The notes under the pieces were generated by a model. That model had not been told where the DNA came from. It ran no database searches and saw only the letters and a program-made list of their open reading frames with translations. A program made the translations under genes and the position numbers. This document shows positions 16,001-46,029 of a stretch of DNA of 64,000 nt, one piece after another. The DNA is from Echinometra lucunter (Eukaryota > Echinodermata > Echinoidea > Camarodonta > Echinometridae), in the NCBI GenBank assembly GCA_029962745.1, contig CM057157.1, positions 801,491 through 865,490 on the forward strand. Reading direction: 5' to 3'. How positions within the stretch are numbered: the stretch's first letter is position 1; every line of letters starts with the position of its first letter.

Positions 16001-19000
16001 TCTGTTAGTACGTTAAAATTCAACAGTTTGGAACCTAATTATAATGAAACTGAACAGGGGCGTAACAGGTACCTGTTATCAGGGGGGGGGGGGGCAGACC
16101 CCAAAATTTCCCGGTAACTAGTCTATGTCTAGAATCTGTGGCGTAGCTACGACTGCATTTTAGGAGGACGGTAGTGCTCCACCGACGTAAATCCAATTTG
16201 AGGAGTGGGGGATGAAAAACTTTTTAAACGATTTTTTTTCCCTCTCACACACATTTTTTATATCTATTTTGTGAGCGAGCGAAGCGAGCCAGCAGAAAAT
16301 AACCACTTTTCTGGTTTTGAATCGCATTTTCGAATAAGAATTCTAAAATATGACAAAAGAGCGAAGTGAGCGAGCCAAAAATAACCACTTTCCTCGATTT
16401 TAATCGCATTTTCGGATGGAAATCCTAAGATTTTGACAAGCGAGCGAAGCGAGCGAGCCAAAAATAACCCTTTTTTTTCAGTAGCATTTTCAAATAGAAA
16501 TTCTAAAGATATGATGGTTGTTTATGATAGATATTCAGAATTTTTACTATCTGATTATTTTCTTCCTTAAAAAGTGTGTCTGCCGGGTCTGCCTGGGGGG
16601 AAATTTGTACACACCATCCCCCTCTCCCCGTAGTGGGGGTGATAGATCCCCCACCCCCTGGAATTTACGCCAATGTAGTGCTCCCTAGCAGTGAAATGTA
16701 GAATTTTCCCCCTCCCGCGCGAAGCGCGGAAGCTCCGACGTTTCTTTGAATTGTTAGTTGTCGGTAATTAAATCTATCTTCTGCGGCGTAACTAGGATTT
16801 CATTTTTAGGGAGATGGTAGTGCTCCGTAGGGGGTGCAGGAAGCTCCGACGTTTTTTTTTTTTTGCTGTCAGTTCCCGCTCTTCTTACGCTTTCTGCTTT
16901 TTATCGGGGGGGGGGGGGGGGGGGGGGGGGGGGAGTGGGCATACGCATAGCCAAAAATTTCCTGGTAATTTAGTCTAGAATCAGTGATTTCATTTTAGGA
17001 GGACGATAGTGCAAAGCGCGCTCCTTAGGCATGCATGCTAGGGGTAGGGAGCAGGGATGGTGATTTTCCCCTCCCGCGCGAAGCGCGGAAGCTCTGACGT
17101 TTCTTTGAATAAATTGTTCGTTGACTTTTCCCGGCCTCTTACATTCTCTGCCTGTTATTCGGGGGGGGGGGGGGGGGGGGGGGGACAGAACCGAAAATTA
17201 CTCGGTATCTAAGTCTAGAAATAGAATATGCTGAGGTGAGCCCGCACCGCGATTTGCTTGTTGCGAAGCCCTTAGCGGGTGGGACCCAATTGCAGGGTTC
17301 TGGCTTAGGGCCCCTGATGGGGTCTACAGGGAAAGCCACTGCGGGGTCCAGGGAGTGGAACCCCCGGAAACTCCGGGGTTTGGGTACTAAATTTTCCCTT
17401 TGCCTTTTTTCTTTTTCCCCCTTTCCCTCTTTTCCCCCTCTCTCTTCTTCTCTATCCCCCTTTTCCTTTTTTTCCCCCGTTCTCCTTCTTCCTTTCCCTT
17501 TCTCCTTCTTTCTTTTCCTTTCTTCTTCTTTCTTTTCCTTTCTTCTTCTTCCTTTCCCTTTCTCCCTAGCTTCCTTTTTCTTCTTTTCCCTCCCTTTCAT
17601 TTTTTCCCGGTGGTTTGGTGGATTTTCCCGCTGAAATCCTTCGGGGGGGGGGGGGCACTCTGCCCCCCTGCCCCCCGGCTGTTACGCCACTGAAACTGAA
17701 GTACTTGCATATCATAAATAGATTAATATCATTTTTTTTTTTTACCCGATACTTCGTCATTTGAAAGTAGTTTTCTCACGAATATTCGCGTAAAAGATTA
17801 GTCTTATGTCAATGACCACAATTGCTAAAAATCACATTTTTACCACACGATTTACCCGACCTTTCGTAAATAAAGGGGGGTGTTTTCACGAAAAGTTGGG
17901 TTACGTGATTACACGGCCCGACGCGATCACCCGATGGTTCGAAGTAAGCCGTCTTGAAAAGGACCTACATGTACTCACTCTCGATGTTTCGGTAGCATGT
18001 TCTTACTGCTCTCAAGGCATGGTGGCTCAGTTGATAGAGCGTCCGCCTCATGAACGGGAGGTCGTGGGTTCGATCCCCGGCCGAGTCATACCAAAGACTT
18101 ACAAAAATGGGACCTTCTGCCTTCTAGCCAGGCGCTCGGCATATAAGAATGGAGAAGGGTAATAATAACATATTAGGTTATGCAGGGCCCGCTGGAAGAT
18201 CAGCTTATAGCTGAAGTGGCTACCCTGGGTAAATAAGAGTTATTATTATTAATATCATAAGGACCGTCCTCAAGGATGGAGAACTGATGGAGAAATATTA
18301 CAAGCCTAAGCTAATTATTGAGGATGGTAAAAAAAATGCTTACCAAGACATTGAGAATGAGTACAGGACCACTCCCTTTACCAGGAAAGAATACAAGGTG
18401 TACCATGAAGCCTTCTACCAACATGGAAACCTTCAAAGGGTATGAACTCTATCATGTTTCAATTGAAAGCAGCAGGACTGTCTGTACATGATGTCATTTT
18501 AATGTTGTATTTTGTGTTATCATTGATGTTTGGTTATGTTTGATGTTATCTCTACAGGAATGCTTTGAACTGTATTTATGAGATGGTAGATCTAGACAGT
18601 AATGGAACACTGAGTAGGAATGAATTCAATATGTTTCAGCTAAGGACTGGAGGAGAGTCTGTTGATGACGATGCTTGGGAAGTGGTAGAAGAGAACTTTG
18701 AACTCAAGAATGGAGAACTGACAAGAAAAGGTTAGATACCAATCATTGTCTCCCTTCTAGGTTAGATTGAAATTGATAATAATTACAGCCTGACAGACAT
18801 GATCCAGCCCTCCCTTCTTCTTGTCTTGGCTTAATATTTTGAATTTCATGGGAACATTATGTCTTTATACATGTACTATTATTTGCAGTAGGCTGATCAT
18901 AACTGTCATGTCCTGTGTTAGTGATCATGTATCATCCAAAGTGTCTTTAATTTTCATCTATCAGTGTGAGCTAGACTTCTGTTTCATTTCTTTATTTCAG

Positions 19001-22000
19001 GATTCTTAGACCTGAATGAGATGGAGGCTAATGATGGCTTCAGTGAGGGAGGGGAGGTCGATGATCTCTGGGTTACACTCTCTTCTATGGGCTTCGCTGA
19101 TGATCTCCTACTCGATGAGGTAAGTCCTGATTGATTGCGTGATGGAGGGGAGGTCGATGATCTCTGGGTTACACTCTCTTCTGTGGGCTTCGCTGATGAT
19201 CTCTTACTCGATGAGGTAAGTCAGGATTGATTGCGTGATGGAGGGGAGGTCGATGATCTCTGGGTTACACTCTCTTCTATGGGCTTCGCTGATGATCTCC
19301 TACTCGATGAGGTAAGTCAGGATTGATTGCGTGATGGAGGGGAGGTCGATGATCTCTGGGTTACACTCTCTTCTATGGGCTTCGCTGATGATCTCCTACT
19401 CGATGAGGTAAGTGCGGATTGATTGCGTGATGGAGGGGAGGTCGATGATCTCTGGGTTACACTCTCTTCTATGGGCTTCGCTGATGATCTCTTACTCGAT
19501 GAGGTAAGTCAGGATTGATTGCGTGATGGAGGGGAGGTCGATGATCTCTGGGTTACACTCTCTTCTATGGGCTTCGCTGATGATCTCTTACTCGATGAGG
19601 TAAGTCAGGATGGTTACCTGCAGAAGGTGTTGGGAAGAAAAAAAATTTTGTTTGGGTTGTTTTCAAATGTTGGAATAGACCAACTCTATCACTGAGATGT
19701 GTGAATGTAATCAGCCCAGTCATATCAAGAGGTGTACATGAAATGATCAGTTATTATTAACTTCGGGGACTTTTTTGTTCTGATTTACAAATTTTCATTT
19801 TCATTTCTTCCTGGACTGAAGGCTTGCCCATTCCTGGTAGACATCTACACCGAGCATAGTCCAGCTGTGATTAGAGCTCAACCCTTACAGCGAGGTGGAC
19901 CATCTTTACAGAAGATCATCTGTCAATCAGTCATTAATGCTGCTGGATTCACTAAGGTTAAGACTTTACAACATGTCAAGCTTCATACATATATGGGTGA
20001 TGGAAGGGTTACATTCATCATGGAGAACACAGTAAGAGTTAATTCTTTTGATTTTTTTTTCCCTTTGAATTATTTTTTTTGTTAAAAGTCTGTTTGTTGC
20101 ACTGCACATGTTCTTGGTGTATATATAGCGCAATAGAATACATGAGAGGAAGAAGGCCTCATTACCATCAAAACAGATTTTGAGTTATATGTATATAGGA
20201 AGGATTTAAAGTGTCAGAGATGAAATACTGTTATCTTTAATCCATGAACATGCATTTCTTAATATGTGAAGATAAACATTTTGTTTCTTAGAAGTATTTA
20301 CAAATTGATAAATTGATAATGTACTGTGTAGGAGTTGACTCTCTTACTATGTTTGTCTTGTACATGTATTTTGTTATGTTTTTACCAGGGTTCAAAGAGA
20401 TGTAGTCTAAAGCTGGATTGCAGTAAGAGTGAGAACTGTCTTATCAATCATGATGATATGATACACAGTGTACAGTGTGGTGCTGGAGCCTCCACGGTAA
20501 GACAATGTTAGGATAGTATAAGAGTGAGAACTGTCTTATCAATCATGATGATATGATACACAGTATACAGTGTGGTGCTGGAGCCTCCATGATAAGACAA
20601 TGTTAGGATAGTATAATGTGGGAAAAAGGGTCAAAACAATTGAAAATGTACCTTGATTTCCAGAATGCATGAATGTTCAAATAGCAGTTCACGTATGTTT
20701 TTTAACTACAGAAGCAGTGGGCGCTTCATGAGTGCTGACACTTCCTACCGGGGGATGAATCCATTGCTATTCAAAGGAGTTTTATTTTTTCTGCCAAACA
20801 TTTGTTTCAGAGAGCCGATGGAGCAGGCACAGAAGTCGAATGAATTTAGGTTACTCAAATTTGATTAAACTACAAATCAGTACTGTTTTACCCCACTTCA
20901 ATGTTAAAGGCATTGGCTAACTTTGTGAGCAGCTGATTTAAAAAATTCTCAAACTAAGATGAAACATGTGTATGAGTACTTGTATTTATACTCAAAAACC
21001 CTGAAACCAACCATAATTTGGAAGGAAAAGCTGTAAATTAGACGCAAACCGCGATTTTATTAGCTTTTGTCTCGAGAGACACTGAACTAAGAGCACCGTT
21101 TGGACGAATTAAAAAATACCGTTACTTGTCTTCCGCCGCGTGATACGTCAATACACACAGTGCGGTCCGTTGAGTCATGTGCGCATGCGCACTCCTTACG
21201 TTGGGTCTATGCAACCGACCCTCGTATATTTCAAATTTCATGGTTCGTAAAAAAAGCATTGCCAATCTCAAATGCTAGAGGCAACCCCCCCCCACCCCCC
21301 TCCCGATGTTTCACTCATCAGTGACCTAACAAAATAGGGGATGGTGGAAGCTCAACATTAGGGTGGACTCGGCATTACACAGCAAAGTGCAAACTTCACT
21401 TAATAGTACTTCAAAATAGCCTTACATTTCATGTTTTGCAGAATTATACGTCATGAAATTTCATCATTTCTCTTCAGTAATTATTTCACACTTTCCTATT
21501 AAATCATTGAGCAGAAAATTGTATTTTAAAGGTTTCTCAATGCAGAAATGCACACAAGTAACTGCAATCAACTTCGCTCCCTTTCTATCTCGATTTTGCG
21601 CTGTGTCTAAAATGTCCTAGGATAGTTTGATTTTATCCCTTTCAATATTGCCCCACCCACAAAGTGAGCAACACAAACATGCATGAACTCCTTTGCTTAG
21701 AGGCAAGCTTGAGCATTAATAGACCAGGGGGGTGTTTCATAAAGCTGTTCGTAAGTTACGAACGACTTTACGCACGACTGGAACAAGTTCTTGGGTGCCG
21801 ATCAGATTCTCATTCATTTACATGTAGCATAAGAAAGTATCACCAGTCGTGCGTAAAGTCGTTCGTAACTTACGAACAGCTTTATGAAACACCCCCCTGG
21901 GCCCTCTGGCATAAAAAGTTGTGATTAAACGCAACTCACAAAGTTAAAGGCAAGTCCCGAATACTCAATTGTGAATGGTTGAAAATCAAGTTGCGTTTAA

Positions 22001-22658
22001 TTTTTTAGTTCCGTTTAATCGCAACTTTTTATGCAAGAGGGCCCTGTGTACTAATATTATGCATACTTGTTGAATAAAATTTTCCCTCTGCAGCTGAGAA
22101 GCTTGCCCTAGGTTTGCCTGATGTAGCAATAGCTAATCTATTCCTTCTATTCAGATGCAAAATAGGTGAACTGAATAGTCAGTAACCAAAGGTTCTGGAG
22201 AAAAACAAGCATACATTTGATTACATTAGTAAACCGGTCTATTGCATGGCACTATCTCACATTTATATGTAATTTCTCTGAAACAGATGTAAATATATAT
22301 TCAGTTATGGGCATATCCAGTGAATTGAGTATTTGATATTGGTTTATGAACAGCTGCTGCTCCTTCGTCAGGAGTAGTGAAAGAAAAGACAATTGAATAG
22401 CATGTTAAGTTGTGAATTGAATCGTGCATTGATCATAAAGCTTATAAGCTCTAACAAATGTACCATTTTCCACGTCAACTATTTTGCAATACTTTCCAGT
22501 AAGTCATGGCATACTGAATGCTTTTGTTTAATGTATAATGTTAAATGATTGCCCAATTCAATATTGTCTCTTTTCATCAGGTTTGCCTTCATCTAGTTCC
22601 CAAGGATGAAGATAAGGAATGGATAATCAACTGCCAAGAAACTTTACTCACATCATGA
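6965..22658 (+). CDS. EFCAB7: EFCAB7, EF-hand calcium-binding domain protein 7 (11 exons, 5' incomplete)
   Basis: Exons: 6965-7051, 7731-7848, 8628-8879, 9835-9941, 10628-10785, 18262-18439, 18558-18730, 19001-19119, 19822-20031, 20389-20496, 22581-22658. All introns are GT..AG and phases agree at every join except 18439/18558. The product (about 528 residues here) has an EF-hand with loop DADGDKKLNYKE, a Lys/Arg-rich linker, a calpain domain III-like beta-rich module (LWLTVKPINVG ... NVFIVK ... LPAGSYRLIPMTTGC), a further EF-hand (DLDSNGTLSRNE) and a C-terminal domain ending LTS-stop. Human EFCAB7 is 629 residues with the same plan: paired N-terminal EF-hands, a third near residue 400. About 100-130 N-terminal residues, including the first EF-hand, are missing. 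Known role: with IQCE it anchors EVC-EVC2 at the base of primary cilia and promotes Hedgehog signalling. Identification is from architecture and remembered family features, not a search. Confidence 0.8.
7731..7848 (+). CDS. EFCAB7: EFCAB7 exon: end of EF-hand and basic linker
   Basis: The exon follows TTCCAAACAG and ends at AGAGAA|GTAAGT, leaving one base. It continues the EF-hand exit helix with FCRMVMSTTSRC and then a strongly basic stretch (LKRLERKERKQKRALK) that leads into the middle domain. Confidence 0.8.
8628..8879 (+). CDS. EFCAB7: EFCAB7 exon: start of calpain-III-like module
   Basis: The acceptor AATAAAG keeps phase with the previous exon (AAT codon across the join). The exon encodes a Ser/Lys linker, then SLPPISKQQL, SDWYHTHTKGCFHLDD and KTKLWLTVKPINVGVVKG, and ends one base into a Gly/Ala codon at GTCAAAG|GTAATG. 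The length is 252 bp. Confidence 0.8.
9835..9941 (+). CDS. EFCAB7: EFCAB7 exon: calpain-III-like module, middle
   Basis: The exon follows a long T-run and ACAAG and ends GAA|GTAAGT. The phase matches the exon upstream (G+CC). It encodes TRDPQTDINVFIVKQNDHG and LLGDVVSFTNVKNKE, the beta-strand-rich part of the module. Confidence 0.85.
10628..10785 (+). CDS. EFCAB7: EFCAB7 exon: calpain-III-like module, end
   Basis: The acceptor is TTCCATCAG and the donor TTTAA|GTAAGT, leaving two bases. The exon encodes KYCVQCELPAGSYRLIPMTT, GCHFKSRTRSVKEK and a charged tail. The AA left at the end pairs with G at 18262 to give Lys, so the 7.5-kb transposon-filled intron still joins in frame. Confidence 0.85.
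11242..11947. mobile_element. Pogo-like nonautonomous DNA transposon, 706 bp, TA target site
   Basis: Ends are CAGGGGAAACTCGGTATAAC and the inverted GATATAACGAG/GGGATTTCCCTG, flanked by TA on both sides (11240-11241 and 11948-11949). Several subterminal copies of CTATAACGAG/CTCGTTATAG occur near both ends. There is no transposase frame. A nearly identical 704-bp copy in the opposite orientation lies at 46518-47221. CAG termini with TA duplications and CTCGTTATA-type ends are typical of pogo/Tigger relatives within Tc1/mariner. Confidence 0.85.
12876..13012. mobile_element. Hairpin MITE
   Basis: The ends CAGGGCTGCGTTTCACGAAA and the exact inverse at 12993-13012 form a stem that extends about 50 bp with small mismatches (CGTCATAAGTCTAA ... 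TTAGACTTATGACG). It sits inside a G-run repeat that resumes at 13013 with GTTCCTGTTATCGAGGGG, so it inserted after that repeat. Confidence 0.75.
13014..13470. repeat. G/C-run repeat copy
   Basis: The copy carries G18 near 13028, C10 near 13278, a pyrimidine tract TTTCTCCCTTTTC-type (13285-13385) and the end TGTTACACCACTGAT. The same blocks, in the same order, occur in the 16055-17695 cluster. Confidence 0.6.
13708..13804. mobile_element. Short hairpin MITE
   Basis: AATATTCAGCCAGGGTTTA at the left is matched by the inverse TAAACCCTGGCTGAATATT at the right around a roughly 60-bp middle. No coding content. Confidence 0.6.
15235..15575. mobile_element. MITE with CTGCTTTCAC termini and GGTCGCAGCGACC subrepeats
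   Basis: The left end CTGCTTTCACTCCAAGGTAC matches the inverse right end GTACCTTGATGTGAAAGCAG, each next to TA. The interior holds many copies of CAGCGACCGAT/ATCGGTCGCTG in both orientations plus repeated GTGAAAGCA, giving very strong internal folding. Superfamily not assigned; the TA could be the target duplication. Confidence 0.7.
16055..17695. repeat. Cluster of G/C-run repeats
   Basis: At least three partial copies lie head to tail: 16055-16270 (GTAACAGGTACCTGTTATC, then G12), 16620-16960 (GCGCGAAGCGCGGAAGCTCC, then about G30) and 17040-17695 (the same block, then G24, then a copy of the 505-1253 repeat in reverse with a CTTTCCTTTCTTCTT tract). The end CTGTTACGCCACTG recurs as GTTACACCACTG at the 13014 copy. 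Extremely long G runs and strand-asymmetric pyrimidine tracts are the hallmark. Open frames here, such as minus-strand 17600-17139, echo the one at 811-1182 but lack gene context. Confidence 0.65.
16269..16520. repeat. About 83-bp tandem repeat carrying GAGCGAGCGAAGCGAGC
   Basis: Three diverged copies start near 16272, 16357 and 16438. Each begins with GAGCGAAGCGAGCGAGCC and continues AAAAATAACCACTTT ... TCGCATTTTCG ... TTCTAA. The GCGAGCGAAGCGAGC motif also occurs singly at 42039, 57380, 57780, 57975 and 58430. Confidence 0.7.
18016..18247 (+). mobile_element. tRNA-derived SINE, full length
   Basis: The head is tRNA-like: A-box region TGGCTCAGTTGATAGAGC, anticodon-loop-like CTCATGA and B-box GGGTTCGATCCCC (18067-18079). 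A unique body with a short inverted motif (GATCAGCTTATAGCTGA) and a TTA-repeat tail (18238-18250) follow. This is the standard layout of a Pol III SINE. The tail ends about 14 bp before the next EFCAB7 exon, so SINE sequence may supply the branch point and tract for the acceptor. Confidence 0.85.
18262..18439 (+). CDS. EFCAB7: EFCAB7 exon after the transposon-filled intron, one-base frame problem
   Basis: The exon begins at ATCATAAG|GACC, which joins in phase with 10785. It encodes TVLKDGELMEKYYKPKLIIE, YQDIENEYRTTPFT and RKEYKVYHEAFYQHGNLQR. The only GT donor is at 18440, after a GGG run. This leaves phase 0, whereas the next exon needs two left-over bases. If one G of 18438-18440 were absent, the join CAA-AG|G would be in frame. 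Confidence 0.8.
18558..18730 (+). CDS. EFCAB7: EFCAB7 exon: third EF-hand
   Basis: The acceptor is TTATCTCTACAG and the donor AAAAG|GTTAGA. The exon encodes NALNCIYEMVDLDSNGTLSR, then NEFNMFQLRTGGES and DDDAWEVVEENFELKNGELT. The loop DLDSNGTLSRNE has Asp 1, Asp 3, Asn 5 and Glu 12. This corresponds to the third EF-hand near residue 400 of human EFCAB7. Confidence 0.85.
19001..19119 (+). CDS. EFCAB7: EFCAB7 exon whose 3' end is tandemly repeated downstream
   Basis: The acceptor is TTTATTTCAG and the donor GATGAG|GTAAGT. The exon encodes GFLDLNEMEANDGFSEGG, then EVDDLWVTLSSMGFADDLLL and DE. The last 72 bp plus the donor are the first unit of the 96-bp array at 19048-19611. Confidence 0.85.
19048..19611 (+). 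repeat. Six-copy 96-bp array of an EFCAB7 exon end with its splice donor
   Basis: Donor sites GAGGTAAGT recur with GT at 19120, 19216, 19312, 19408, 19504 and 19600, exactly 96 bp apart. Copies differ by only a few bases (for example TCTGTGGGC in the second, GTAAGTGCGG in the fourth). 96 is a multiple of three, yet each spacer contains an in-frame TGA four codons past the donor, so only splicing from the first donor keeps the protein intact. Confidence 0.95.
19822..20031 (+). CDS. EFCAB7: EFCAB7 exon: C-terminal domain
   Basis: The exon follows CTGGACTGAAG and ends ACA|GTAAGA; 210 bp, phase 0 at both ends. It encodes ACPFLVDIYTEHSPAVIRAQ, QKIICQSVINAAGFTKVKT and YMGDGRVTFIMENT. A run of beta-strand-like segments suggests a folded C-terminal module. 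Confidence 0.85.
20389..20496 (+). CDS. EFCAB7: EFCAB7 exon: C-terminal domain, continued
   Basis: The acceptor is TTTTTACCAG and the donor TCCACG|GTAAGA; 108 bp, phase 0. It encodes GSKRCSLKLDCSKSENCLIN and HDDMIHSVQCGAGAST. Its 3' two-thirds, with the donor, is duplicated just downstream. Confidence 0.85.
20424..20614 (+). repeat. Two-copy 95-bp duplication of an EFCAB7 exon end and donor
   Basis: The block from TAAGAGTGAGAACTG through the donor and 22 bp of intron recurs once, starting at 20519. In the second copy the donor CACGGTAAGA has become CATGATAAGA, losing its GT, and CAGTGTACAG has become CAGTATACAG. The copy is otherwise nearly identical. Confidence 0.9.
21725..21899. mobile_element. 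Long-stem hairpin MITE
   Basis: CAGGGGGGTGTTTCATAAAG at the left matches its inverse at 21880-21899, and the stem continues through CTGTTCGTAAGTTACGAACG and CGCACGACTGG for about 60 bp. The short open frame across it (from 21664) is a by-product. Confidence 0.8.
21899..22044. mobile_element. Second hairpin MITE abutting the first
   Basis: GGGCCCTCTGGCATAAAAAG is matched by the inverse CTTTTTATGC...GAGGGCCC at the right. Inner arms ATTAAACGCAACT and AGTTGCGTTTAAT give a second stem. It shares its border with the MITE at 21725-21899. Confidence 0.75.
22581..22658 (+). CDS. EFCAB7: EFCAB7 terminal exon and stop
   Basis: The acceptor is CTTTTCATCAG. The exon encodes VCLHLVPKDEDKEWIINCQE then TLLTS and TGA. 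Phase 0 matches the exon at 20389-20496. The intron before it (20497-22580) holds the duplicated exon end and two hairpin MITEs. Confidence 0.85.
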   Translation, partial: VCLHLVPKDEDKEWIINCQETLLTS

Positions 22659-28679: not shown

Positions 28680-29695
28680 AGAGAGAGAGAAGAAGAAGAA
28701 GAAGAAGGAGACACAGAATGAAGGAGAGTAAATGATAGATGTGGAGATACTGGGAGAAAAGACCAACAAGATAACCAAGAGGAAGAGAGAGAGAGAGAAA
28801 GGGGAGAGAGGGAAGAAGAAGAAGAAGGGGAGCCAGGATGAAGGAGAGTAAATGATAGATGTGGAGATACTGGGAGAAAAGACCAACAAGATAACCAAGA
28901 GGAAGAGAGAGAGAGAGAAAGGGGAGAGAGGGAAGAAGAAGAAGAAGGGGAGCCAGGATGAAGGAGAGTAAATGATAGATGTGGAGATACTGGGAGAAAA
29001 GACCAACAAGATAACCAAGAGGAAGAGAGAGAGAGAGAAAGGGGAGAGAGGGAAGAAGAAGAAGAAGGGGACCCAGGATGAAGGAGTGTAAATGATAGAT
29101 GTGGAGATACTGGGAGAAAAGACCAACAAGATAACCAAGAGGAAGAGAGAGAGAAAGGGGAGAGAGGGAAGAAGAAGAAGGGGAGCCAGGATGAAGGAGT
29201 GTAAATGATAGATGTGGAGATACTGGGAGAAAAGACCAACAAGATAACCAAGAGGAAGAGAGAGAGAGAGAAAGGGGAGAGAGGGAAGAAGAAGAAGAAG
29301 GGGAGCCAGGATGAAGGAGAGTAAATGATAGATGTGGAGATACTGGGAGAAAAGACCAACAAGATAACCAAGAGGAAGAGAGAGAGAGAGAAAGGGGAGA
29401 GAGGGAAGAAGAAGAAGAAGGGGAGCCAGGATGAAGGAGAGTAAATGATAGATGTGGAGATACTGGGAGAAAAGACCAACAAGATAACCAAGAGGAAGAG
29501 AGAGAGAGAGAAAGGGGAGAGAGGGAAGAAGAAGAAGAAGGGGACCCAGGATGAAGGAGTGTAAATGATAGATGTGGAGATACTGGGAGAAAAGACCAAC
29601 AAGATAACCAAGAGGAAGAGAGAGAGAAAGGGGAGAGAGGGAAGAAGAAGAAGGGGACCCAGGATGAAGGAGTGTAAATGATAGATGTGGAGATA
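28680..29695. repeat. Purine-rich minisatellite, 113-120-bp unit, about 8 copies
   Basis: The unit contains AAATGATAGATGTGGAGATA, GACCAACAAGATAACCAAGA and a GAGAGAGAAAGGGGAGAGAG plus (AAG)n segment. Full units repeat every 120 bp, shortened to about 113 where GA and AAG runs contract. The plus strand is almost all purine over long stretches. Minus-strand open frames of about 400 codons in three frames arise from this composition and are not genes. Confidence 0.95.
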
Positions 29696-29846
29696 TTTGG
29701 ACTGAAAAGACCAACAAGACAAAGAGGAAGAGAAAGATGCAAGGAGACAGAAAGAGATACAGAGAGACAGAGAGTATGTTCAGATGGAATGAGAGACAAA
29801 AGGCAATTCCACATGGGAAGCACAATCAGATATTTTCAGATATATA

Positions 29847-30215
29847 GTAAAAACAATCACTTTGATAGTCCTGAATAGCCAAACTTTTGAATACAAAGAA
29901 GTTAGAAAGCAAAAAGAAATTCCGCCATCTTAGTCAGTATTGTTATAATGCATATTTGATTTTACAATACATATTTGTTATTTGAAAGTAGCACCATTTT
30001 CTGGTAATTTCATTACCAAGGTATTTACATGTATACCACAATATCATGAATATAACTAGAAAATTGTTGAAATGAAAGATTTCAGGTGAAAGAATGGGCA
30101 TATTTTCAGAGTATTACGTGGTAAGAAGGAAGGCAGGGTACAAAATGAGTACACTAACTCTAGCAATGTGAGTAACGGAATTACACATTGTAATTCCGTT
30201 TTCGTGGAATTGCCC
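29847..30215. repeat. Diverged relative of the GGGCAATTC MITE
   Basis: AGTAAAAACAATCACTTTGA and the following 350 bp resemble 34043-34395, ending in GTAATTCCGTT...GGAATTGCCCC. The segment includes a perfect stem AACGGAATTACA/TGTAATTCCGTT at 30175-30201. The other duplicate carries the same element at 45261-45632. Confidence 0.5.
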
Positions 30216-31047
30216 CAAAGGAAATGAAACAAAATATGAAGAAACAGATATGAATGGAGATATACATATACAGGTAGTACAAGAGACATAAAGAGAGAAA
30301 GGGAAAAGGAAAGAGAGAGAGGGAGAGAGAGAAATAGACTGGATAGGGCGGTTAACAGTTTGGATATTTTTCTAAGATAATAACAATAGTAATAACAGCA
30401 CATTTATAATACGTCTAATACTATGTTTCTAGGCGCTGTGGTGCTGTTGTCCCTGCAGCCATTTAAGTGAAGCACTTGTCCAATACACCCACTGGAAAGC
30501 TGGGACAACAGCACCACAATTGCACTTATGCAAAATTTATATTGCAGAAAGGCAGTACAACTTAATTCAATTAAGCAATTAATATATACAGTATATATGT
30601 ATATATATATATATATGTATAATTTCATGTGATTCATGTTGAGGACCGAAGATTATTAAGTAAGCTACATGCGAGTTTATATAGGTAATTTTGAGCCACA
30701 GTTGAAGTGCGTCATCCTGAGCCAAGAGCATCAATTCTACCTTTGTATTATTCAGGTAGTCCAAGAAATATGGCACCTTTTCTTTTAAGTTGTGAAAAAT
30801 ATTAAATCACCTTAAGCAGTGATGAAACTGTTGATCAATAAAATCTGTTTTAGTATCACCTTAAAATGATAGTAACAGGATAGGAAAAATTAAAAGAAAA
30901 GCTGCAGCAATGAAAATACAAAAATGATTTCAGACCTTTCATCTTTCCTGGATCTTAATGCATTTGATAATTTTAGTTAAATCCGTTTGATTATTTTAGT
31001 TAAGTCCATGGATAGTTGTGGATGGGGTCTACAGAAAATTTGTATTA

Positions 31048-31500
31048 CATGTATATACTGTATGAAATAATAGCATGCTAGCAATCCTTAGCCCTTTGAT
31101 GTACTATGTTACATGTATATACTGTATGAAATAATAGCATGCTAGCAATCCTTAGCCCTTTGGTGCACTAGGTTTCATGTATATACTGTATGAAATAATA
31201 GCATGCTAGCAATCCTTAGCCCTTTGATGCACTAGGTTTCATGTACATGCTGTATGAAATAATAGCATGCTAGCAATCCTTAGCCCTTTGATGCACTAGG
31301 TTTCATGTATATACTGTATGAAATAATAGCATGCTAGCAATCCTTAGCCCTTTGGTGCACTAGGTTTCATGTATATGCTGTATGAAATAATAGCATGCTA
31401 GCAATCCTTAGCCCTTTGATGCACTAGGTTTCATGTACATGCTGTATGAAATAATAGCATGCTAGCAATCCTTAGCCTTTCGGTGCACTAGGTTTCATGA
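31048..31500. repeat. 64-bp minisatellite, 7 copies (copy 1)
   Basis: The unit contains ACTGTATGAAATAATAGCAT, GCTAGCAATCCTTAGCCC and TGCACTAGGTTTCATGTA. Copies begin near 31061 and then every 63-65 bp. The equivalent array in the other duplicate (47222-47570) has five copies. Confidence 0.9.
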
Positions 31501-32249
31501 TTATCTTTAAGATATTGTGTGCTGTTCAATATTTACAAATGTATTTTCTTATTAAATTGACTAGCCTTTCACATTAAGCAAGTTTAAATGCTATGTATTT
31601 GTTTCGATGATTTTTTTTTCTGTTTCCTAACCCTCAGTTTTAGTTAAGTTTGAAACAGATGTAAAGAGTACCCTTTGCAACCTTTAATTACAATATTAAG
31701 AAACCTATTTTAGTCCACATTTAGCTCTGTGTGTCAATATTGTCATAGTTCTGAATGTAAACATACCAATCCCTGACATTTTAAAGTTTACTCAAAACTC
31801 AACTCATTTGCTCTGTGCTAGCAGTCAGTGATAATGAGAATATTGGCCAGTGTTATCCAGGCTGTAAGAGAAGGATATATGAATCAAGTAATCATGAAAC
31901 ACCATTATCAGGATAACCTACTTAATGTCTCACTTTGATTTAGAGAAGTATTTTCTTCTTTTTAACACATTTTTTTTTTTTAAATTAGCTTGGTTAAGAT
32001 TTTTTTTTCTTCTAACTCTATCACTCTTCATCATATTCAAAGTGATTTTCTTAATAATCAGTGTGCTTGTAAGGCATCGGAACTAAAAGATTAGTTTCAT
32101 TGTCTATGTTCTAATGTAAACTTGTTTAATAGTGTAAGACATATGTGATTTAGCAGAAAATCTAGATAAGAAGTGAGTTGATATCAAATTAAAAGTCATC
32201 AGTTGATAGCACTAAATACAAAGTAGATGAATGACATGTGGTATGTATT

Positions 32250-32302
32250 TTATCATGGAGCTATTAACTATGTTGATAATATGTTAATAGCTCCATGATT
32301 TT
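32250..32302. repeat. Short perfect hairpin
   Basis: ATCATGGAGCTATTAAC and GTTAATAGCTCCATGAT form a 17-bp stem around a 15-nt loop. It is kept in the second duplicate (about 48311-48358) with one change in the left arm. It is too short to call a miRNA. Confidence 0.5.
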
Positions 32303-33517
32303 ATCATGTGTAATGTAATTGTATTCACCATCTACTTTAAGTTCATTGGTTTAAAGATAAATGTAATGGTAGGCTGTGTGTGGTCATATCAGAAGATTAA
32401 GATGACAAAGCAAAAAATGAAAGAGAGGGTACAGCAAGAATCCATGCTGGCACTTTTTGAATGTAACTGCGTATACATGCACTGCTGAAAGCATATAGTG
32501 TCTTACAGCTCTTCACATTGTTACAGATCATAGTAGTACTAGTACCCATGTTATTATTGTTTGTTCTTGATCAGTTATGCATGTCATCGATATATGGCCA
32601 CTATGTAATTGATTGCAGGTTAGAGACAAAAACAGACAATGCATGTATATGAGAGAGTTGACACCTGTCATGCTCTACACCCGAGAGATTACTGCTATGT
32701 ATTATCTAGTCTATAGAAGTAATTGGAATGCAGATTTGTCATCAAGATAAGTATGTGTAATATGGCTGATATGGCACAGATAAAGAAACTCGTTGCATGT
32801 ATTGGAGATATTCTCTTCCCTCTGGGATTGTCTGTTGCAGCTAGTGTAACCTCTAATTCATACAGAGAAAACCTTTGTTTTCATGATAATACTGTATTTG
32901 TTCAGCTCATTTTGCATACTGAAAAGGGTTAAATACTTTAATAATTATCATCCATCAGGTAGTTTTATCAACTTCGTTTTGATGAAATAAATGTATGTAT
33001 AAAAAACAAGATGTTTATTCAATGACCTACTCTCAATTGTACATTCACGTCCAGTAATATGAAGTGTGATTATATCATTATTGGTCATGACTCATAAGAC
33101 ATTCAGATGTCTGGAAGGATAAATGAAATGTCAATTCATGACTGAGACACATGATAGTTTACAAGGCTACTAGCTATGATTACAGCAGCACTTACATATC
33201 CAATGATTTATTATTACTCCTGTAATATTCTAAATTTTAGTTTAGTTTCTCTACCAAACTTGGAGTAGTGTCCACATAGAATTGTCAAAATATCATTGTC
33301 TAATATACTAATATCAGTAGTACAGTTATATTAGAATTGAAAGTTGACACACTAAGAAACATAAATTTATTTTGAGGACAAGAATTAGGTTTCTCCTGAC
33401 TGAGCTGCAATGCAAGGAGAAATATCTCGCATGTGGGATATTTTCCTTGTAAACTCACTGCCTGAAGTATCTCCGTCTATAATGGTAGCATTTTTGTTAC
33501 AGGACTATTTTTCTAGT

Positions 33518-33934
33518 TTAAAGCATTCATGACATAGGTCCACATTTTGTGGTTTGACCTAATAACTTTTGTTGCAGAGCCCTAAAAATTATACCAAATA
33601 CATGAGCAGAAAGAGCAAAAAAAATCTACACAAACTGTGCCCATTTTGGTTGCATCAATATTTGTTGTTTGATGCTGAAAATATTTCAGAGGAAATTAAG
33701 CATTAAAATCTTTAAATTGGCAATGTGATAGAAAGTTTAAAATCACTATTTTCCCCTGCAAATTGGCAACTTTTTGACTTCTCATCATAATTTCTGTCAA
33801 TTTATATTCATTTCAGATACATGATGTTGTATGAGAAAAATGTAGCAATAAAATAAAAATGTTGGTGTTGCCAATTTGAAGAATAAAAGCTGATCAAATT
33901 AGGCTTTAAATAATTCCTGTCATGAATGGGTTAA
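33518..33934. mobile_element. TTAA-flanked piggyBac-like MITE, copy 1 locus B
   Basis: The right end CCTGTCATGAATGGG|TTAA is intact. The left end has changed to TTAA|AGCATTCATGACAT. The body contains CCACATTTTGTGGTTTG and AGCAGAAAGAGCAAAA. The allelic counterpart at 49601-50017 has both ends intact. Confidence 0.8.
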
Positions 33935-33988
33935 AGCAGTGATTTGTATTGGTAACATTTAGAACCTTTCTCTTATTGATGTGATAGT

Positions 33989-34395
33989 TGGACAATTCTG
34001 CGTCAGAAAAACAGTTGCCTTACTTAAGTTACTTCACATTTATAGTAAAAACAATCACTTTGATAGCCCTGAATCGCCAAATCTTTGAATTAAAAAAGGC
34101 TGAAACAATAAAGAATTCCATAATCTTAGTCTGTGTTGATATGATACCTGTTTGATTTTAAAAGACATGTTTGAAGTTTAAAATTGGTGCTTTTTTCTGG
34201 TGATTCCGTTACTGAGGTGTTATACCACTATATCATGAACGCAATAATAAAATTGTTGGAATGAAAGAGCTCACATAAAAGAATGGGCATATTTACAGAG
34301 TATCAAATGGTGAGAAGGGAGGCAGAATACAAAAGAGGCGCAGAAAGTCTAAAAATGTTGGTAACGGAATTACACCCTTAACATGGGATTGCCCA
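33989..34395. mobile_element. MITE with GGGCAATTC termini (copy 1)
   Basis: The left end TTGGACAATTCTGCGTCAG and the inverse of the right end CATGGGATTGCCCA match over about 14 bp, and inner ends carry GGTTGCC / GGTAACGGAATTACAC. The counterpart at 50072-50477 has the cleaner left end TTGGGCAATTCTGTGTCAG. Confidence 0.55.
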
Positions 34396-35937
34396 GTTGT
34401 ATGTGAATTCATGCTAAAATTCTGATACATTACAACTAGTCATTTGTGGGAATACTGTGAAAGTATCCATGACTGCTTGGCACTTTTACTAATTACATGT
34501 ATCTGAAATATTCAGTATCATGTTGGAGCAACATATGTCCAATAGCCAAGTTCTCCTTGTTAATCATATAATTCTTAATTTGAAGTTCTGCTATACTATA
34601 GTGTGAACTTGATTTTATTCTTGCACAAGAAATAGAATAAGAAGCAATGTTTCCATGATACATGGATGTTAAAACAATTCATGTATAATATGTTCTGTGA
34701 TGAATTGTAATATCTTGTTACCATACAATTCTTCTGGCAAGTACCACCTGCATAAATCAACATCCTACTTGTCAAAAATCTGCTTTGCCTTTTGAGTGGA
34801 AAATGTGTTAACAGAAGATTTCCTATTCATTGCTTCGGGTAGATCCTGTGATACTGGATATATTATTCATGATAAATCAAAGCAACTTGAAGTGGAGTAG
34901 GAGGGTTTACTAACACCCACAGATCAAAGCTGAAATCACAAACACCTCTCGAACTGAGGTAAATGATAGGAACGTTCACATACATCTCAGTCTTTCACTA
35001 CTGTTATGTGTGTTCACACAGGGGCTACTCAGCTTTGTGTACATGAACAGCTGTATCTCTCTCTTTGAACTTCAAGTAATATGTACATGGCAAATGATAT
35101 TACTTCCTCAGCATAATGAATTATTACATATTTTGTGTCTTTGATAACCTGAATGAAATTAGTCTGGTTAACCTTTAATTATTTTGTAGCCTGCACCATG
35201 CTTGCACATGTGAAGATATTGTGTTTAATGATTAGACATGGCACCGTACTGTGAAGGTTCATACAATTTCTAAATGGGTGAATTCATATCATTTCTCAAG
35301 GAAGATTGATAAAGAGGGAAAGTTCTACCAATTGTGTAGTATGTTTCATGTGAAAACTTGAGTTTCATTTAAAATTTTTGATTTTGAAATGTTAATATTG
35401 TAATTCATGTAAGAAAGCAAACAAATTCCCAAAGAATCAGATATTAATGAGTGGCATTCATCATTGAAACTTGATGACAAATATTTTGCAAAAGGTGTGG
35501 CAGGTCATTTGAGAAATCGATTTATAGGTACATGTACATGTAGGTAAAGTCATCTGTCAGACTGGGCACTGATATCATTGGCAGGCAAGAGTTGGTAAAT
35601 GAAATAGGATTTTGAAATCAGAAGATTTATCTGGATTAACTCTTTGACTGTTTGGATGAATTTGATTCTTCAAGTTCCTTTTTGCTTGTAAACATAGCCT
35701 TATTTGTATATTTTATCTGAAGAAATAATTGTGTGTTTATTATTATTATAGTGAATTTCTAGTATTGATAAACCACAAGAAGTCCTCACAAGAACTATAA
35801 CTACTAAGATTATACCCCCTTCCATGTCATCCTTCTATCATTACCCTTCATGTTACATTTCAGAAGAGTATTGGGAAGAAGCAGCCTTTTTTAAAATTGT
35901 GTTTAAATGTATGCTCTATTTCTCTAAATTCCCTATC

Positions 35938-36205
35938 ACTATGAACATGACCGACAAAGAAAGTGGACAAAATAATCAACCTCTCATTCTGCCCTTCACT
36001 ATGGTTCGGGTAGTCAAAAGAACATCCCTTTACAGCTATTATGTTTAATCATGTAGTTCCCGGTGAATATGCATGTGACACCTGTTCCACATATTTCAGA
36101 TAATAGCAGTGAAGGGATTTTCTTTTGACTATGAGCACCATTGTTAAGGGTAGAATGAGGGGTTGTTTATTTTGTCCGCTTTCTTTGTCCATCATGTTCA
36201 TAGTG
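35938..36205. mobile_element. 268-bp MITE with about 110-bp TIRs, only in copy 1
   Basis: CACTATGAACATGACCGACA and the following arm through AATAATCAACCTCTCATTCT and GTCAAAAGAACATCCC is repeated inverted from 36095 to 36205. The duplicate at about 51995-52040 lacks it and has unrelated sequence instead. An open frame from 35824 runs into the MITE and is not supported. Confidence 0.8.
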
Positions 36206-36996
36206 TCAGTGTGTATGGCTCACTAAAAATAGAAGTGGATGGTGATTAATCCCATACGACATGAATATTTCTAAATTAGTGGATTTTATCTCTTTATTTA
36301 TTTACATCATGTGATACTGTAATCACCAAGGGGGGTTCAGTTTATATTAAGTATTAAAGTGCCACTGGGAGTGTGTGACTGGTTCACAGTCTTTGTTAGA
36401 AGACCGATAATTTATTTACAACTTCGGCAGTGATCTAATCAATGTACAGCTGCATTACTAATGGATTCAAAGAGGATCCTATTAGCACTTAGATTTTACT
36501 TAACCCTCTCCCTTTTCTCTATCTTTGTTGTCTCCCTTTCTCTCTGCCTCTAGCCCTTTTGTTCCCTTTCTCAAGACTCTAGATTTTCTCTCTCCTCTCT
36601 ACGTCTTTCTTTCACACACACTTTTGCTTTTGCTTTTGTATACTTGAAATTCATGTAATATTGCAAAACATTTAATCAATCTGTTTTATGATATTGATTT
36701 TTCCTTGTTTATTTCAAGCCTTTTGTAAAGTTTTCCATTAGCATGACATTTTGATTCACCATTTCTTTTGAAAATCATGTTTTTGATATATTTTCATTTA
36801 CTCCACCTTTTTTATTCCTCAATATTTTTTTTCTTTCTCACACATGCTTCAATCCACTCCCTCTCTTTGTCTTTCTTTCCTAGCTTTTTTTTTTTCCTTG
36901 TGTTATCTCTATATCTCTCTTTTTTAAACACACAGGCAAGCATTGGTAACAATATGTCTATAGTACGTTAATTTTTTTGATGTACGTTAAAAGAGC

Positions 36997-37110
36997 AATA
37001 TAGATAAAATGCCTTGCTCAAGGGCATAAATGCCGTGCCAGGGATCGAACTCCGAATTCTCGCGTCTCCAATCAAGCACTTGCCTTAAACCACTGGACCA
37101 CGGCACCTGC
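36997..37110 (-). mobile_element. tRNA-derived SINE fragment, minus strand (copy 1)
   Basis: On the minus strand GTGCCGTGGTCCAGTGGTTT (A-box region), GGAGTTCGATCCCTGG (B-box) and GCACGGCA can close like a tRNA acceptor, followed by GCCCTTGAGCAAGGCATTTT, a common SINE body. The counterpart lies at 52849-52964. A different family from the SINE at 18016. It lacks intron and terminator evidence for a real tRNA gene. Confidence 0.65.
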
Positions 37111-38799
37111 ACTCTCTCCTTCCCTCACACACACATACGCTCACACACACACACACACACCACTCTGTCTCTCTCCATCTGTATCTATGCTTGTGTCATC
37201 TCTTAAGCTGTCTTTGGATCAATGATTCTGATGATAATGAGATTCTCTTAACCACCATGCAAAGCTCAGCTTGCTAGCTATAGCTAGGCAGGCAGGCAGG
37301 CTGGATGAAAGATGAATCAATGTTTATTAACCATGCAATTTCGGTGTGTGCATTAGTGTGGCTATATGTGGGTGTGTGGGTGCAGGCTAGTTTGTGTGTG
37401 TGTATGAGTGTCTGCGTATAGGCACAGGTAGTGGTATCGAGGTAGAGGTGGTTAGCGGTGGGCACACACACTTGCTCCTTCAGTTGCTCAATCGAGCACT
37501 CTAGCATCTATTTTAGTGCAGAGCTCTTTGAGAATCGGTGAACTGCTAAAAAGGAATCTAGCTGAATGCATTAATACAGGATTATTGATGTACAGCCAGG
37601 AACATCCACTCTCCATGTATTCATTACCACCGCCCAGCTAACATAGCTTATTAACGTTCATTTTCATTGAAAATATTTACCGAGCAGTTTTCTGGAAGAA
37701 ACCCGTGTATTTGGACTATATTCTATCATCTAGAAGGTGGACATTCAAGTTTGGAGTGCTATTTGTTAATGAATTACAAGCAAGTCCTTATCATTTAGAT
37801 AAGGATCCTATTCTTCTGAACAAGCTTAGGATAAAGAGGATATATTTCAAGGATTGTATATTTCTCTTTCTTCTTACCGGAAGCAGATAGAAACATCACC
37901 CTGCTGTTTGTTATAGAGGATGAGACACGAAGCAGGAGTACAGGTATACTCACTTTGATACCAGTTACAATTGGCAGATATTTCATTTAGTAGAAGTGAA
38001 AGTATTTCATGTGAAAAACAACAGCAAGTTATTACATACCACATGTCAAGAATCTAGGCCTCTGATTGGTCAATCTCTAGGTATGAAATGCACTAGGGAC
38101 TGCCTGGCAGTATAGCAAAAATATTAACTGGGCTTAGTACTTGCATGTAAAAACAGTGATATACAATAGACACGTCTGGAGTTAACTATAGGTACACTTG
38201 GTGGGATGTGTGCACCACTCACAGACTTTTAAATTTCATTCATGTAAAAAAAAAATAATAAAAAAAAAAATAAAATTAAAAAATTAAAAAATTAAAAAAT
38301 TAAAAATTTCATGCATGTACATGAAAATCAAGCCTCATATGGCACAGGTACAATAAGTTACACTTGAAAAGAGTGCTTGAGTGCACCCATAGACTGTCTG
38401 ATAATTATGAACAAGAAATCCAAATGTGTCAAATAAAACCCAACATCCAGAGTAGTAATTGCAATGGAGATACTTGTAAAAGATTCTAAATTCTGTTATT
38501 GAAGTATGTGAAATACATATATAGGTAATGAATATGTTCCCAGGGCTTCATCATGCATCAGATGAAAAAAAAAACCCGTTATTTATTGTTTGCATATGAT
38601 GTATTAATGAGAGTAAAACTTAGTTTAGCATTGAATTTTCATGGTCAGGTTGGTCTTTGAGAAATCTTTCTGTACCAGGTGAACTGTATAAAATGATACC
38701 TCTCTGTTGAGTGCATCATATATCTACATGCATGTAATACTTCACAGAGTGCACATGTAATGTGACATCAAACAGTTGCAGATCATTATTCTCACATCT

Positions 38800-38832
<33 letters not shown>

Positions 38833-39651
38833 CATGTACAACTGTATTCTTGTTCACATGGAGTAAACAAGGTTCCTGAGAGAGATATATTCTCTGATAC
38901 ACAAAAGATTACACAACAGTAGCTGAAAATTAGGTTCAGTGTTGTATGTTTACAGAACTGTATATAAAACGTACACAAAGAGAGATTTTTAAAGATACAT
39001 AAAACCTAATGCCACATAGAGGGATTCGATATCGTGTAGCTGGCCTTTGAACACAGGTGGCCCTTGTATTATGAATCCATCACAATGAGAAGAAAAGTAG
39101 ATGAAAACGTTAAGTCCTTTTTTTAAAGTCCTATCTTTTACATTATACAATATTAGAAAATTGTGACTGATGCTGCATTCTATTCTCGTTTTTCTTTAGA
39201 ACCATTTGCTAGAAGGTAGAGGCTTTGTAATATGTTTCCTGACTTGAACCAATTCAATCAAATTTGCAGATGTATCCTGCAGCAAGGTATCCAATAAAAC
39301 CTCTCCGAGTTACGACAGTACTGACCTCTGACTAGTAATACACAATGCTTGTATGAAGTTATATTTGGATCTCAAATTGAAGTTCATCCAGAAAGACAAG
39401 ATGATTAAATTTCTCTGTTGTTGCCTTCACCATGTTATTTATTCTCACACAGTTCAAAATCAACAGAAATAAAAGCAGAAAAATATAACACAGTTACATT
39501 GTATTACTTGCAAATGACTGGTACATATATTTTTATCTTTTAATTATTTTGTTTCTTTTCAAAATAGAACAAATTCTTGATTTTGAAATAAAAAAATGAA
39601 TTACCTGTGAGAAGATGTTTCTGATACTATGACAAGCTAGCAGCCACATGT

Positions 39652-39653
<2 letters not shown>

Positions 39654-39687
<34 letters not shown>
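39654..39687. repeat. (GT)n microsatellite
   Basis: A pure GT dinucleotide run in copy 1, reduced to T9-GTGTGTG in the other duplicate at 55527-55541. Confidence 0.9.
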
Positions 39688-39688
<1 letters not shown>

Positions 39689-39705
39689 AAATTAATCAGT
39701 TTCTT

Positions 39706-40121
39706 TTAACCCATTCATGACAGAGGTCCACATTTTGTGGTTTGGGCTAATATCTTTTGATGCAAAGCCCTAAAAATCATACCAAATACATGAGCAGAAA
39801 GAGCAAAAAATTCTATACAAACTGTGCCCATTTCAGTTGTGTCAATATTTGTTGTTTGATGCTGAAATTTTTTAAAAGGAAAATAAGCATTAAAATCCTT
39901 AAATTGGCAATGTGATAGAAAATTTAAAATCACCGTTTTCCCCTGCAAATTGGCAACTTTTTGACTTTTCATCATAATTTCTGTCAATTTCTATTCATTT
40001 CAGATACATGACGTTTTATAAGAAAAATGTAGCAATAAAATAAAAATGTTGGTGTTGCCAATTTGAAGAATAAAAGCTGATCAAATTAGGCTTTAAATAA
40101 TTCCTGTCACGAATGGGTTAA
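39706..40121. mobile_element. Intact TTAA-flanked piggyBac-like MITE, locus C
   Basis: TTAA|CCCATTCATGACAG at the left and CTGTCACGAATGGG|TTAA at the right: TIRs of about 14 bp beginning CCC with TTAA target duplications, the signature of the piggyBac superfamily. It is 416 bp with no transposase. The other duplicate has a single TTAA at 55561 where this element sits, an empty site. Confidence 0.9.
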
Positions 40122-41335: not shown

Positions 41336-41466
41336 ATTATCTTCTTCTTCTTCTTCTCTTCTTCTTCTTCTTTTCTTCTTTTTCTTCTTCTTTTTCTTTT
41401 CTTCTTCTTTTCTTCTTCTTCTTCTTCTTCTTCTTCTTCTTCTTCTTCTTCTTCTTCTTCTTCTTT
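41336..41466. repeat. (CTT)n microsatellite (copy 1)
   Basis: CTT repeats with occasional interruptions. The counterpart at 56773-56841 is about half as long. The minus-strand poly-Lys/Arg frame is an artefact. Confidence 0.9.
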
Positions 41467-41989
41467 GAGATACTTCTCATTGTTCCATCAAGAATGAAAC
41501 ACAAGAAGGATAGGGGAATGCTCACTTCTATTTGTTTGTTTAGTCCTTATTGCTTGAATCTTTCAGGAATGAAAGAAGTTAATTTTTCTAATTTGAAAGT
41601 GCCCTTGTACATTATTTGTTTGTGACGTTTGATGGTAGAGTGTTCCAGTCTTTAATGATACTTGGGATGTGTGCCTGGGTGTCGATTTGTGTTCGCGGTT
41701 GGGGGGGGGGGATGACTGATGCTGAATATCCTCGACCGCGGAGCAAAGCGACCGATTGGGAAAAGGGTGTGTAGGTTCAAACGTGAAGGCCTAGGACAGA
41801 CTACCGGTAAATATGCGGGGGAGGGGGGGAGGGGTAGGACCTTTTTTTTCTGCCCATATATCTGCATTATTAGTCTAATGCCGTTCCTTCAATTAACCGC
41901 ACAAAAATTGTTTTCAAACAATATCCCAGAGGAACATCCTCATTACTCGAATGAGAAGTTTAAGGGACTTGAACCCTTACTTATATAGA

Positions 41990-43904: not shown

Positions 43905-43912
43905 GTAAGTGT
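43552..43912 (+). repeat. 72-bp tandem array, five copies
   Basis: The unit TTCTCTGAATGTTGGTGATA ... GAGTTTTGCAGGGGTAAGTG repeats at exactly 72-bp steps with one-base variants (GGTGGTAGG in the fourth, GGGCATAGG in the fifth). Each unit includes an acceptor-like TTTTGCAG and a donor-like GTAAGT. Confidence 0.95.

Positions 43913-46025: not shown

Positions 46026-46029
<4 letters not shown>

What the first reader, a model, noticed from the sequence alone, without database searches (positions are those of the whole stretch)
19048..19611. EFCAB7 exon end and splice donor amplified six times at an exact 96-bp period
The last 72 bp of a conserved exon, its GTAAGT donor and 24 bp of intron are repeated with almost no divergence. 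That places six strong, identical 5' splice sites in a row. The period is 32 codons, yet every spacer has TGA in frame four codons past each donor, so use of donors 2-6 would truncate the protein before the C-terminal domain. The array is a natural test of how the spliceosome picks among identical donors, and a potential source of regulated truncation.
Basis: partly seen in the sequence, partly recalled or inferred. Interest (0 to 1): 0.75.

Follow-up and report, generated by a model that had tools for sequence, protein, structure and literature searches.

The report
Sixfold splice-donor repeat in urchin EFCAB7
In a sea urchin gene the end of one exon and its "cut here" splicing signal have been copied six times in a row; the extra copies most likely sit harmlessly inside the intron, and the same genome seems to carry similar arrays in other genes, which makes it a good natural test of how cells choose among identical splice signals.

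Summary
The array is real: 96 bp x 5.9, 19043-19611, six identical GAG|GTAAGT donors. The gene is a sea-urchin EFCAB7 (best match Lytechinus pictus, 86%); donor 1 gives a join without insert in 14 of 14 aligned homologues. Donors 2-6 all give one product ending VSPD*, its stop 402-786 nt before the last junction, so likely decayed. Published minigenes with two identical strong donors used only the upstream one under exon definition (PMC9225289, passages); this exon (119 nt, introns 270 and 702 nt) roughly fits. Best reading: a minisatellite whose extra donors are mostly ignored. Regulated truncation has no support. Units run GT...AG, so copies might also be excised as dual-specific sites, as in human UBC (PMC10809524, passages). 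It is not unique: an exon two further on has a two-copy version with a dead second donor, and arrays keeping GT lie at exon ends reading as NUDC, class IIa HDAC and COG8. Per occurrence the donor word is chained about as often as two control words. No RNA data were available.

The parts
19043..19611 (+). 96-bp tandem array, 5.9 copies: 72 bp of exon end + 24 bp of intron start including the GTAAGT donor
19001..19119 (+). EFCAB7 exon (119 nt) ending at donor 1; its last 72 bp is array copy 1
   Evidence: gene model; homologues
19120..19143 (+). donor 1 (GAG|GTAAGT) and spacer 1 with in-frame TGA
19144..19239 (+). copy 2, donor 2 at 19216
19240..19335 (+). copy 3, donor 3 at 19312 (identical to the consensus)
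19336..19431 (+). copy 4, donor 4 at 19408
19432..19527 (+). copy 5, donor 5 at 19504
19528..19611 (+). copy 6 (84 of 96 bp), donor 6 at 19600
19822..20031 (+). following EFCAB7 exon (ACPFLVDIY...), acceptor for donor 1
20389..20496 (+). EFCAB7 exon two after the array exon; its end is itself duplicated
20424..20616 (+). second donor-spanning duplication, 95 bp x 2; copy 1 donor at 20497 intact, copy 2 donor at 20592 lost (GT to AT)
22581..22658 (+). last EFCAB7 exon with stop codon

Best explanation
A segment covering the last 72 bp of an EFCAB7 exon and the first 24 bp of its intron was tandemly duplicated and then grew to six copies, like other minisatellites of this sea-urchin genome. Copy 1 stays joined to the unique part of the exon and keeps the working donor. 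Copies 2-6 lie in the intron and are mostly ignored, because the exon is defined across its short length from the acceptor at 19001 to the nearest strong donor. Rare use of donors 2-6 gives one truncated reading frame that is expected to be destroyed by nonsense-mediated decay. Shown: sequence, gene model by homology, frame and stops. Inferred: history, donor choice, decay, neutrality.
For: Array and donors. With donor 1 the join has no insert in 14 of 14 aligned homologues, and LDEACPF across it is exact in 4 of 14 (P0001, P0002, P0003, P0012; the 14 were picked from 120 listed hits). Donor 1 scores best of the gene's nine modelled donors on a small matrix built from the same gene, and the other five copies tie with it. 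Exon 119 nt, introns 270 and 702 nt; minigenes with two CAG/guaagu donors of identical strength and 365-nt introns used the upstream donor exclusively, the intron/exon-definition boundary being put at 200-250 nt (PMC9225289, passages). Downstream donors all stop at VSPD*, 402-786 nt before the last junction. Background process: in contigs C1-C13 of the listed places, chains of three or more copies number 11 for AGGTAAGT, 6 for AGTGAAGT and 7 for GTAGATGA, against 21, 11 and 13 occurrences of the words in one 628-kb two-strand sample: 0.52, 0.55 and 0.54.
Against: No RNA from this species was available. The intron-centred rule, as reviewed in PMC9225289, and the DOK7 study of two non-identical competing donors (PMC5585400, passages) favour the intron-proximal donor, which here would be donor 6, leaving a 222-nt intron. 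The upstream intron of 270 nt is only just above the quoted boundary. The loss of the extra donor in the neighbouring array hints that spare donors can be harmful.
Confidence: 0.62

Rival explanations
1. Dual-specific or recursive removal: because each unit runs from GTAAGT to GATGAG, the AG|GT at each copy end can act as acceptor and then donor, so copies are spliced out singly or together and the normal mRNA results whichever donor is used first.
For: AG|GT at every copy end. AGGT sites used as both donor and acceptor are reported in the human UBC array, and introns in repeats with a length that is a multiple of the unit number 77 of 792 (PMC10809524, abstract and passages). In the EFCAB7 array two exons on, the boundary is CG|GT, where such removal is impossible, and there the second donor is dead. 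In the AG|GT arrays at exon ends whose gene family a tool supported, 26 of 26 copies keep GT and 24 of 26 the whole AGGTAAGT (EFCAB7 6, NUDC 4, HDAC 4, COG8-like 6+6; L034 taken as COG8-like by eye from its likeness to L035).
Against: The AG is a weak acceptor: score 0.57 or -0.29, with 144 of 732 intronic AGs scoring at least 0.57; nine of the gene's ten modelled acceptors score higher (1.45 to 12.4, left-one-out), one lower (-1.82). The 26 of 26 is biased, because arrays were picked by an intact repeated AGGTAAGT. The CG|GT case is a single example.
Confidence: 0.15
2. Regulated truncation: donors 2-6 are used in some tissue or condition to make a shorter EFCAB7 or to lower its level by decay.
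For: In-frame stop in spacer 1; six strong donors.
Against: All five give the same product; no conservation evidence; donor-word arrays occur at about the rate of two control words; the neighbouring duplication lost its spare donor.
Confidence: 0.07
3. Assembly artefact: copy number inflated or array created by mis-assembly.
For: The assembly is imperfect nearby: 29441-44366 and 44867-60506 are 97% alike over 13,799 aligned columns and meet at a 500-N gap, as unmerged contig ends would.
Against: Copies 1, 2 and 4 carry private variants; the array lies outside that overlap; comparable arrays occur at other places of the genome.
Confidence: 0.08
4. Intron-proximal donor 6 dominates, so the allele is damaged and on the way to loss.
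For: Intron-proximal preference in intron definition (review passage in PMC9225289) and in DOK7 (PMC5585400, passages); donor 6 leaves a 222-nt intron.
Against: The ten modelled exons join in an open frame.
Confidence: 0.06

Closest known systems
Dual-specific splice-site array of human polyubiquitin UBC (PMC10809524; abstract and passages read)
   Same: Tandem units bounded by AG|GT, each end able in principle to be donor or acceptor.
   Different: UBC repeats are whole coding monomers and give proteins with fewer units; here the unit is an exon tail plus an intron start with an in-frame stop, and use as acceptor is untested.
[quoted passage not shown] ATP2A1 and the fission-yeast 24-bp arrays SPOG_01682 / SOCG_00815 (as told in PMC4974935; passages read)
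   Same: Tandem duplication of an AGGT-containing segment; in one yeast gene an intron spans four duplicates.
   Different: Here the unit already contains an intron start; no intron gain is claimed.
Minigenes with two 5' splice sites of identical strength (PMC9225289; passages read)
   Same: Identical strong GTAAGT donors competing behind one internal exon.
   Different: Two engineered sites in transfected cells; here six natural ones in a sea urchin, with unequal introns.
Murine polyomavirus late leader-to-leader splicing (PMC5086616; passages read)
   Different: Genome-length repeats carrying donor and acceptor, in viral transcripts.

Membership tests
EFCAB7 orthologue | Best hits over the whole model are EFCAB7 proteins | tested here: met
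   469-aa partial model: 288 proteins at E <= 0.001, best an EFCAB7-like protein of L. pictus, 86% over 100%; alignment with 14 of them; EF-hand Pfam hits
Minisatellite array | Head-to-tail copies far above chance | tested here: met
   TRF score 1075; 0 of 20 shuffles
Minisatellite array | Copy number varies between chromosomes | tested here: inconclusive
   Not testable for this array; the 72-bp array at 43552 has 5 copies against 1 in the overlapping block near 59.98 kb, if that block is the other haplotype
Dual-specific splice-site array | AG|GT at unit boundaries | tested here: met
Dual-specific splice-site array | Same site observed as donor and as acceptor in RNA | not testable with these tools
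   No RNA-seq; acceptor score weak
Recursive splicing ratchet site | Good polypyrimidine acceptor directly before GTAAGT | tested here: inconclusive
   Array AGs score -0.29 to 0.57, below nine and above one of the gene's ten modelled acceptors; 144 of 732 intronic AGs score at least 0.57; the matrix rests on ten sites
Intron gain by AGGT duplication (Rogers) | New intron absent from relatives | not tested
   Relatives' gene structures were not available
Regulated alternative 5' splice site | Condition-dependent use of the sites | not testable with these tools
   No RNA data

The most novel reading that the evidence does not exclude
This sea-urchin genome carries a standing class of exon-end-plus-donor minisatellites in conserved genes, and what decides their fate is the dinucleotide before the donor: units bounded by AG|GT keep their spare donors because any mistake can be spliced out again, whereas units bounded otherwise (as in the EFCAB7 exon ending at 20496) must lose them. 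Splicing would then act as a genome-wide buffer that lets minisatellites grow across exon borders and feed new introns.
Probability: 0.2. Interest if true: 0.7.

Novelty: new variant of a known kind. Interest (0 to 1): 0.45.

Why it matters
Choice among identical donors has been studied with engineered pairs (PMC9225289, passages). Here nature supplies rows of four to six nearly identical donors behind what read as coding exons in several genes of one animal, with copy number that may well vary between individuals, so dose, distance and position effects could be read from ordinary RNA-seq. It also suggests that repeats can grow across an exon border while the exon itself keeps its frame.

Tried and rejected
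Regulated truncation was weighed and set low, because all downstream donors give the same early stop. RNA structure hiding the decoys: the predicted chance of the donor 9-mer being unpaired is low for all six (about 0.00006 to 0.003, highest for donor 4), with no pattern favouring donor 1.

Donor motifs as preferred seeds of arrays: the window alone suggested it (GTAAGT or GTAAGA in 4 of its 10 arrays of period 30 or more, counting the 95-bp one, whose consensus has lost it), but 0 of 8 arrays in 200 kb of C1 had GTAAG[TA] in the unit and 1 of 3 array rows in 50 kb of C2 did. The tool's own control (pattern read backwards) had more matches than the pattern in all four answered searches: 443 against 134 for AGGTAAGT, 231 against 81 for AGTGAAGT, 4945 against 146 for AAGTAAGT, 296 against 177 for GTAGATGA.

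Chain counts were made by hand from the listings, as runs in which a match starts at the word that ends the one before it (three or more words in a row). Listings stop at 100 places, so I compared C1-C13 only. The tool says that its counts of repeats are lower bounds. AAGTAAGT, a donor word without AG|GT, was to be the test of the buffer idea: 9 chains through C13 (list cut within C13; several with shorter sub-periods) against 23 occurrences in the sample, 0.39. Its letters could not be read, so exon status is unknown and the idea stays untested.

Divergence in the donor 8-mer is lower than elsewhere in the units (14 of 544 against 237 of 5536 mismatches), but I do not use this as evidence of selection, because the arrays were picked by that motif. 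That count entered 16 arrays: three of the window and 13 of the 16 array loci among the 20 fetched (L037, L040, L041 left out); W2 and L048 then fell out because the consensus lacked the searched motif, leaving 14. GT is kept in 67 of 68 copies of those 14 (the loss is in L036).

Two more patterns (AGGTGAGT; AGGTAAGT at a longer spacing) and a DNA search with 20380-20640 did not complete (21, 26, 35). Paper searches (listings seen) did not show this array or a sea-urchin survey of such arrays; nothing wider is claimed.

The names alpha-mannosidase II (L033) and TPX2 (L038) are recalled from the peptides and have no tool support (no Pfam hit; no PDB hit for L033). L030 and L031 gave only weak Pfam hits and L036 none. 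COG8 and 'class IIa' are recalled names for the hits found. While placing exon joins I also leaned on a recalled human EFCAB7 sequence; the report rests on the homologue alignment.

Full report
TRF finds 19043-19611 at period 96 with 5.9 copies and no indels, and a direct layout shows six 72-bp exon ends, each followed by GTAAGT. The nine donor bases are identical in all six copies; copies differ from the consensus at only five unit positions, with a private variant in each of copies 1, 2 and 4. None of 20 shuffles of the surrounding 6 kb gave an array of period 30 or more. A search of the 743-Mb assembly that holds the window gave one match, the window itself.

The gene is EFCAB7 in a sea urchin. 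Ten exons on the + strand join into an open frame of 469 codons, lacking the N-terminus. The best of 288 database matches is a Lytechinus pictus EFCAB7-like protein, 86% identical over the whole model; Diadema antillarum has 74%. I aligned the model with 14 of the 120 listed hits. None of the 14 has an insert where donor 1 is joined to the acceptor at 19822, and LDEACPF across that join is exact in 4 of 14. So donor 1 gives the ancestral protein. The species itself was not identified.

What the other donors would do: using any of donors 2-6 retains spacer 1, which reads VSPD and stops. The protein is then the same in all five cases, and the stop lies 402 to 786 nt upstream of the last exon junction. 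By the general junction rule of nonsense-mediated decay (established knowledge, not tested here), such RNAs are expected to be degraded. Donor 6 is followed by no TGA at four codons, a small correction to the finding.

Which donor is used cannot be seen without RNA. Published minigenes come close: with two donors of identical strength (CAG/guaagu) behind an internal exon and introns of 365 nt, the upstream donor was used exclusively in the constructs tested, while in intron definition the donor nearest the acceptor is favoured; the boundary is quoted at 200-250 nt (PMC9225289, passages). Here the exon is 119 nt with introns of 270 and 702 nt; donor 6 would make a 599-nt exon and a 222-nt intron. 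In C. elegans a duplicated donor doublet was likewise used mainly upstream (PMC8865678, passages), whereas in DOK7 the intron-proximal of two competing donors was preferred (PMC5585400, passages). I therefore favour donor 1 with the rest as decoys, at 0.62.

A second route is open. Each unit starts with GT and ends with AG, so a copy can in principle be cut out as a 96-nt intron and leave AG|GT intact. AGGT sites used as both donor and acceptor are reported in human UBC, which carries a tandem array of them (PMC10809524, abstract and passages), and AGGT duplication is a published model of intron gain (PMC4974935, passages). Against it, the AG here is a weak acceptor: on a small matrix built from this gene's ten modelled acceptors, 144 of 732 intronic AGs score at least as high, nine of the ten acceptors score higher and one lower.

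The array has company. The exon two further on (20389-20496) ends in a 95-bp duplication (20424-20616) that also spans its donor. Its two copies differ at 3 of 95 positions, two of them in the donor, and copy 2 has AT for GT. There the boundary is CG|GT, so removal of a copy as an intron is not possible. At 43552-43920 a 72-bp unit with GGG|GTAAGT has five copies, while the similar block near 59.98 kb has one. The blocks 29441-44366 and 44867-60506 are 97% alike over 13,799 aligned columns, with ten gaps of 40 bp or more; the first ends and the second starts at a 500-N gap. That looks like unmerged haplotype ends; if so, copy number differs between haplotypes.

Across the genome, AGGTAAGT repeated at a distance of 68-98 bp gives 134 matches. 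I fetched 20 places from the list; TRF found an array in 16 and none in 4 (L043, L045, L046, L047). In several the first donor ends an open frame that reads as coding. A tool supported the family of three: L032 a histone deacetylase (PDB 3c0y, HDAC7, E 2.7e-18, then HDAC4), L029 NUDC (PF16273, E 6.4e-10; 7ndx, E 0.0023) and L035 Dor1-like (PF04124, E 1.6e-12; the name COG8 is recalled). In these plus L034 (alike by eye) and EFCAB7, 26 of 26 copies keep GT and 24 of 26 the whole AGGTAAGT, with the caveat that the arrays were chosen by an intact repeated donor.

Are donors special? No sign of it. Chains of three or more words through contig C13 number 11 for AGGTAAGT, 6 for AGTGAAGT and 7 for GTAGATGA, against 21, 11 and 13 occurrences in the same sample. 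The donor word AAGTAAGT has 9 chains for 23 occurrences, from a list cut within C13. The backwards-read control patterns had more matches than the patterns in all four searches. The AG|GT donor word is thus repeated about as often as its abundance predicts, neither clearly amplified nor purged. That is what one expects if splicing makes such arrays close to neutral, but the counts are small and made by hand.

Verdict: a real and tidy natural experiment, probably one of a class, with a mechanism largely foreseen by published work. Regulated truncation is not supported. Interest 0.45.

Noticed in passing
20424-20616: 95-bp x 2 duplication spanning the end and donor of the EFCAB7 exon 20389-20496; donor of copy 2 lost (GT to AT), two of three differences fall in the donor.
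   Followed up: yes
43552-43920: 72-bp x 5.1 array, unit with TTTTGCAGGG|GTAAGT; open in one frame throughout; one copy only in the similar block near 59.98 kb.
   Followed up: partly
29441-44366 and 44867-60506: About 15 kb of 97% identical sequence; the first block ends and the second starts at a 500-N gap: probably unmerged haplotype contig ends left in the assembly.
   Followed up: partly
62747-63219: 58-bp x 8.2 array with GAA|GTAAGT at each unit junction; gene context unknown.
   Followed up: no
18268-18442: Open frame in the intron before exon 18558 (LKDGELMEKYYKPK...NLQR), followed by GTATGA, not part of the EFCAB7 model; no Pfam match.
   Followed up: partly
L034 and L035 (C12:29310000-29311700 and C12:29328800-29330400): Two COG8-like loci on opposite strands about 19 kb apart, each with a 6-copy 89-bp array across an exon end.
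   Followed up: partly
L041: 78-bp x 10 array, open in one frame where read (VSWIFRVRKRFYEHETKVLEQQKVYE), looks like a coding repeat rather than exon end plus intron.
   Followed up: no
C13:3132235-3133932 and C18:1652062-1655389 of G000: Long arrays of AGGTAAGT-bearing units of about 80 bp, many copies; only the listed matches were seen, loci not fetched.
   Followed up: no
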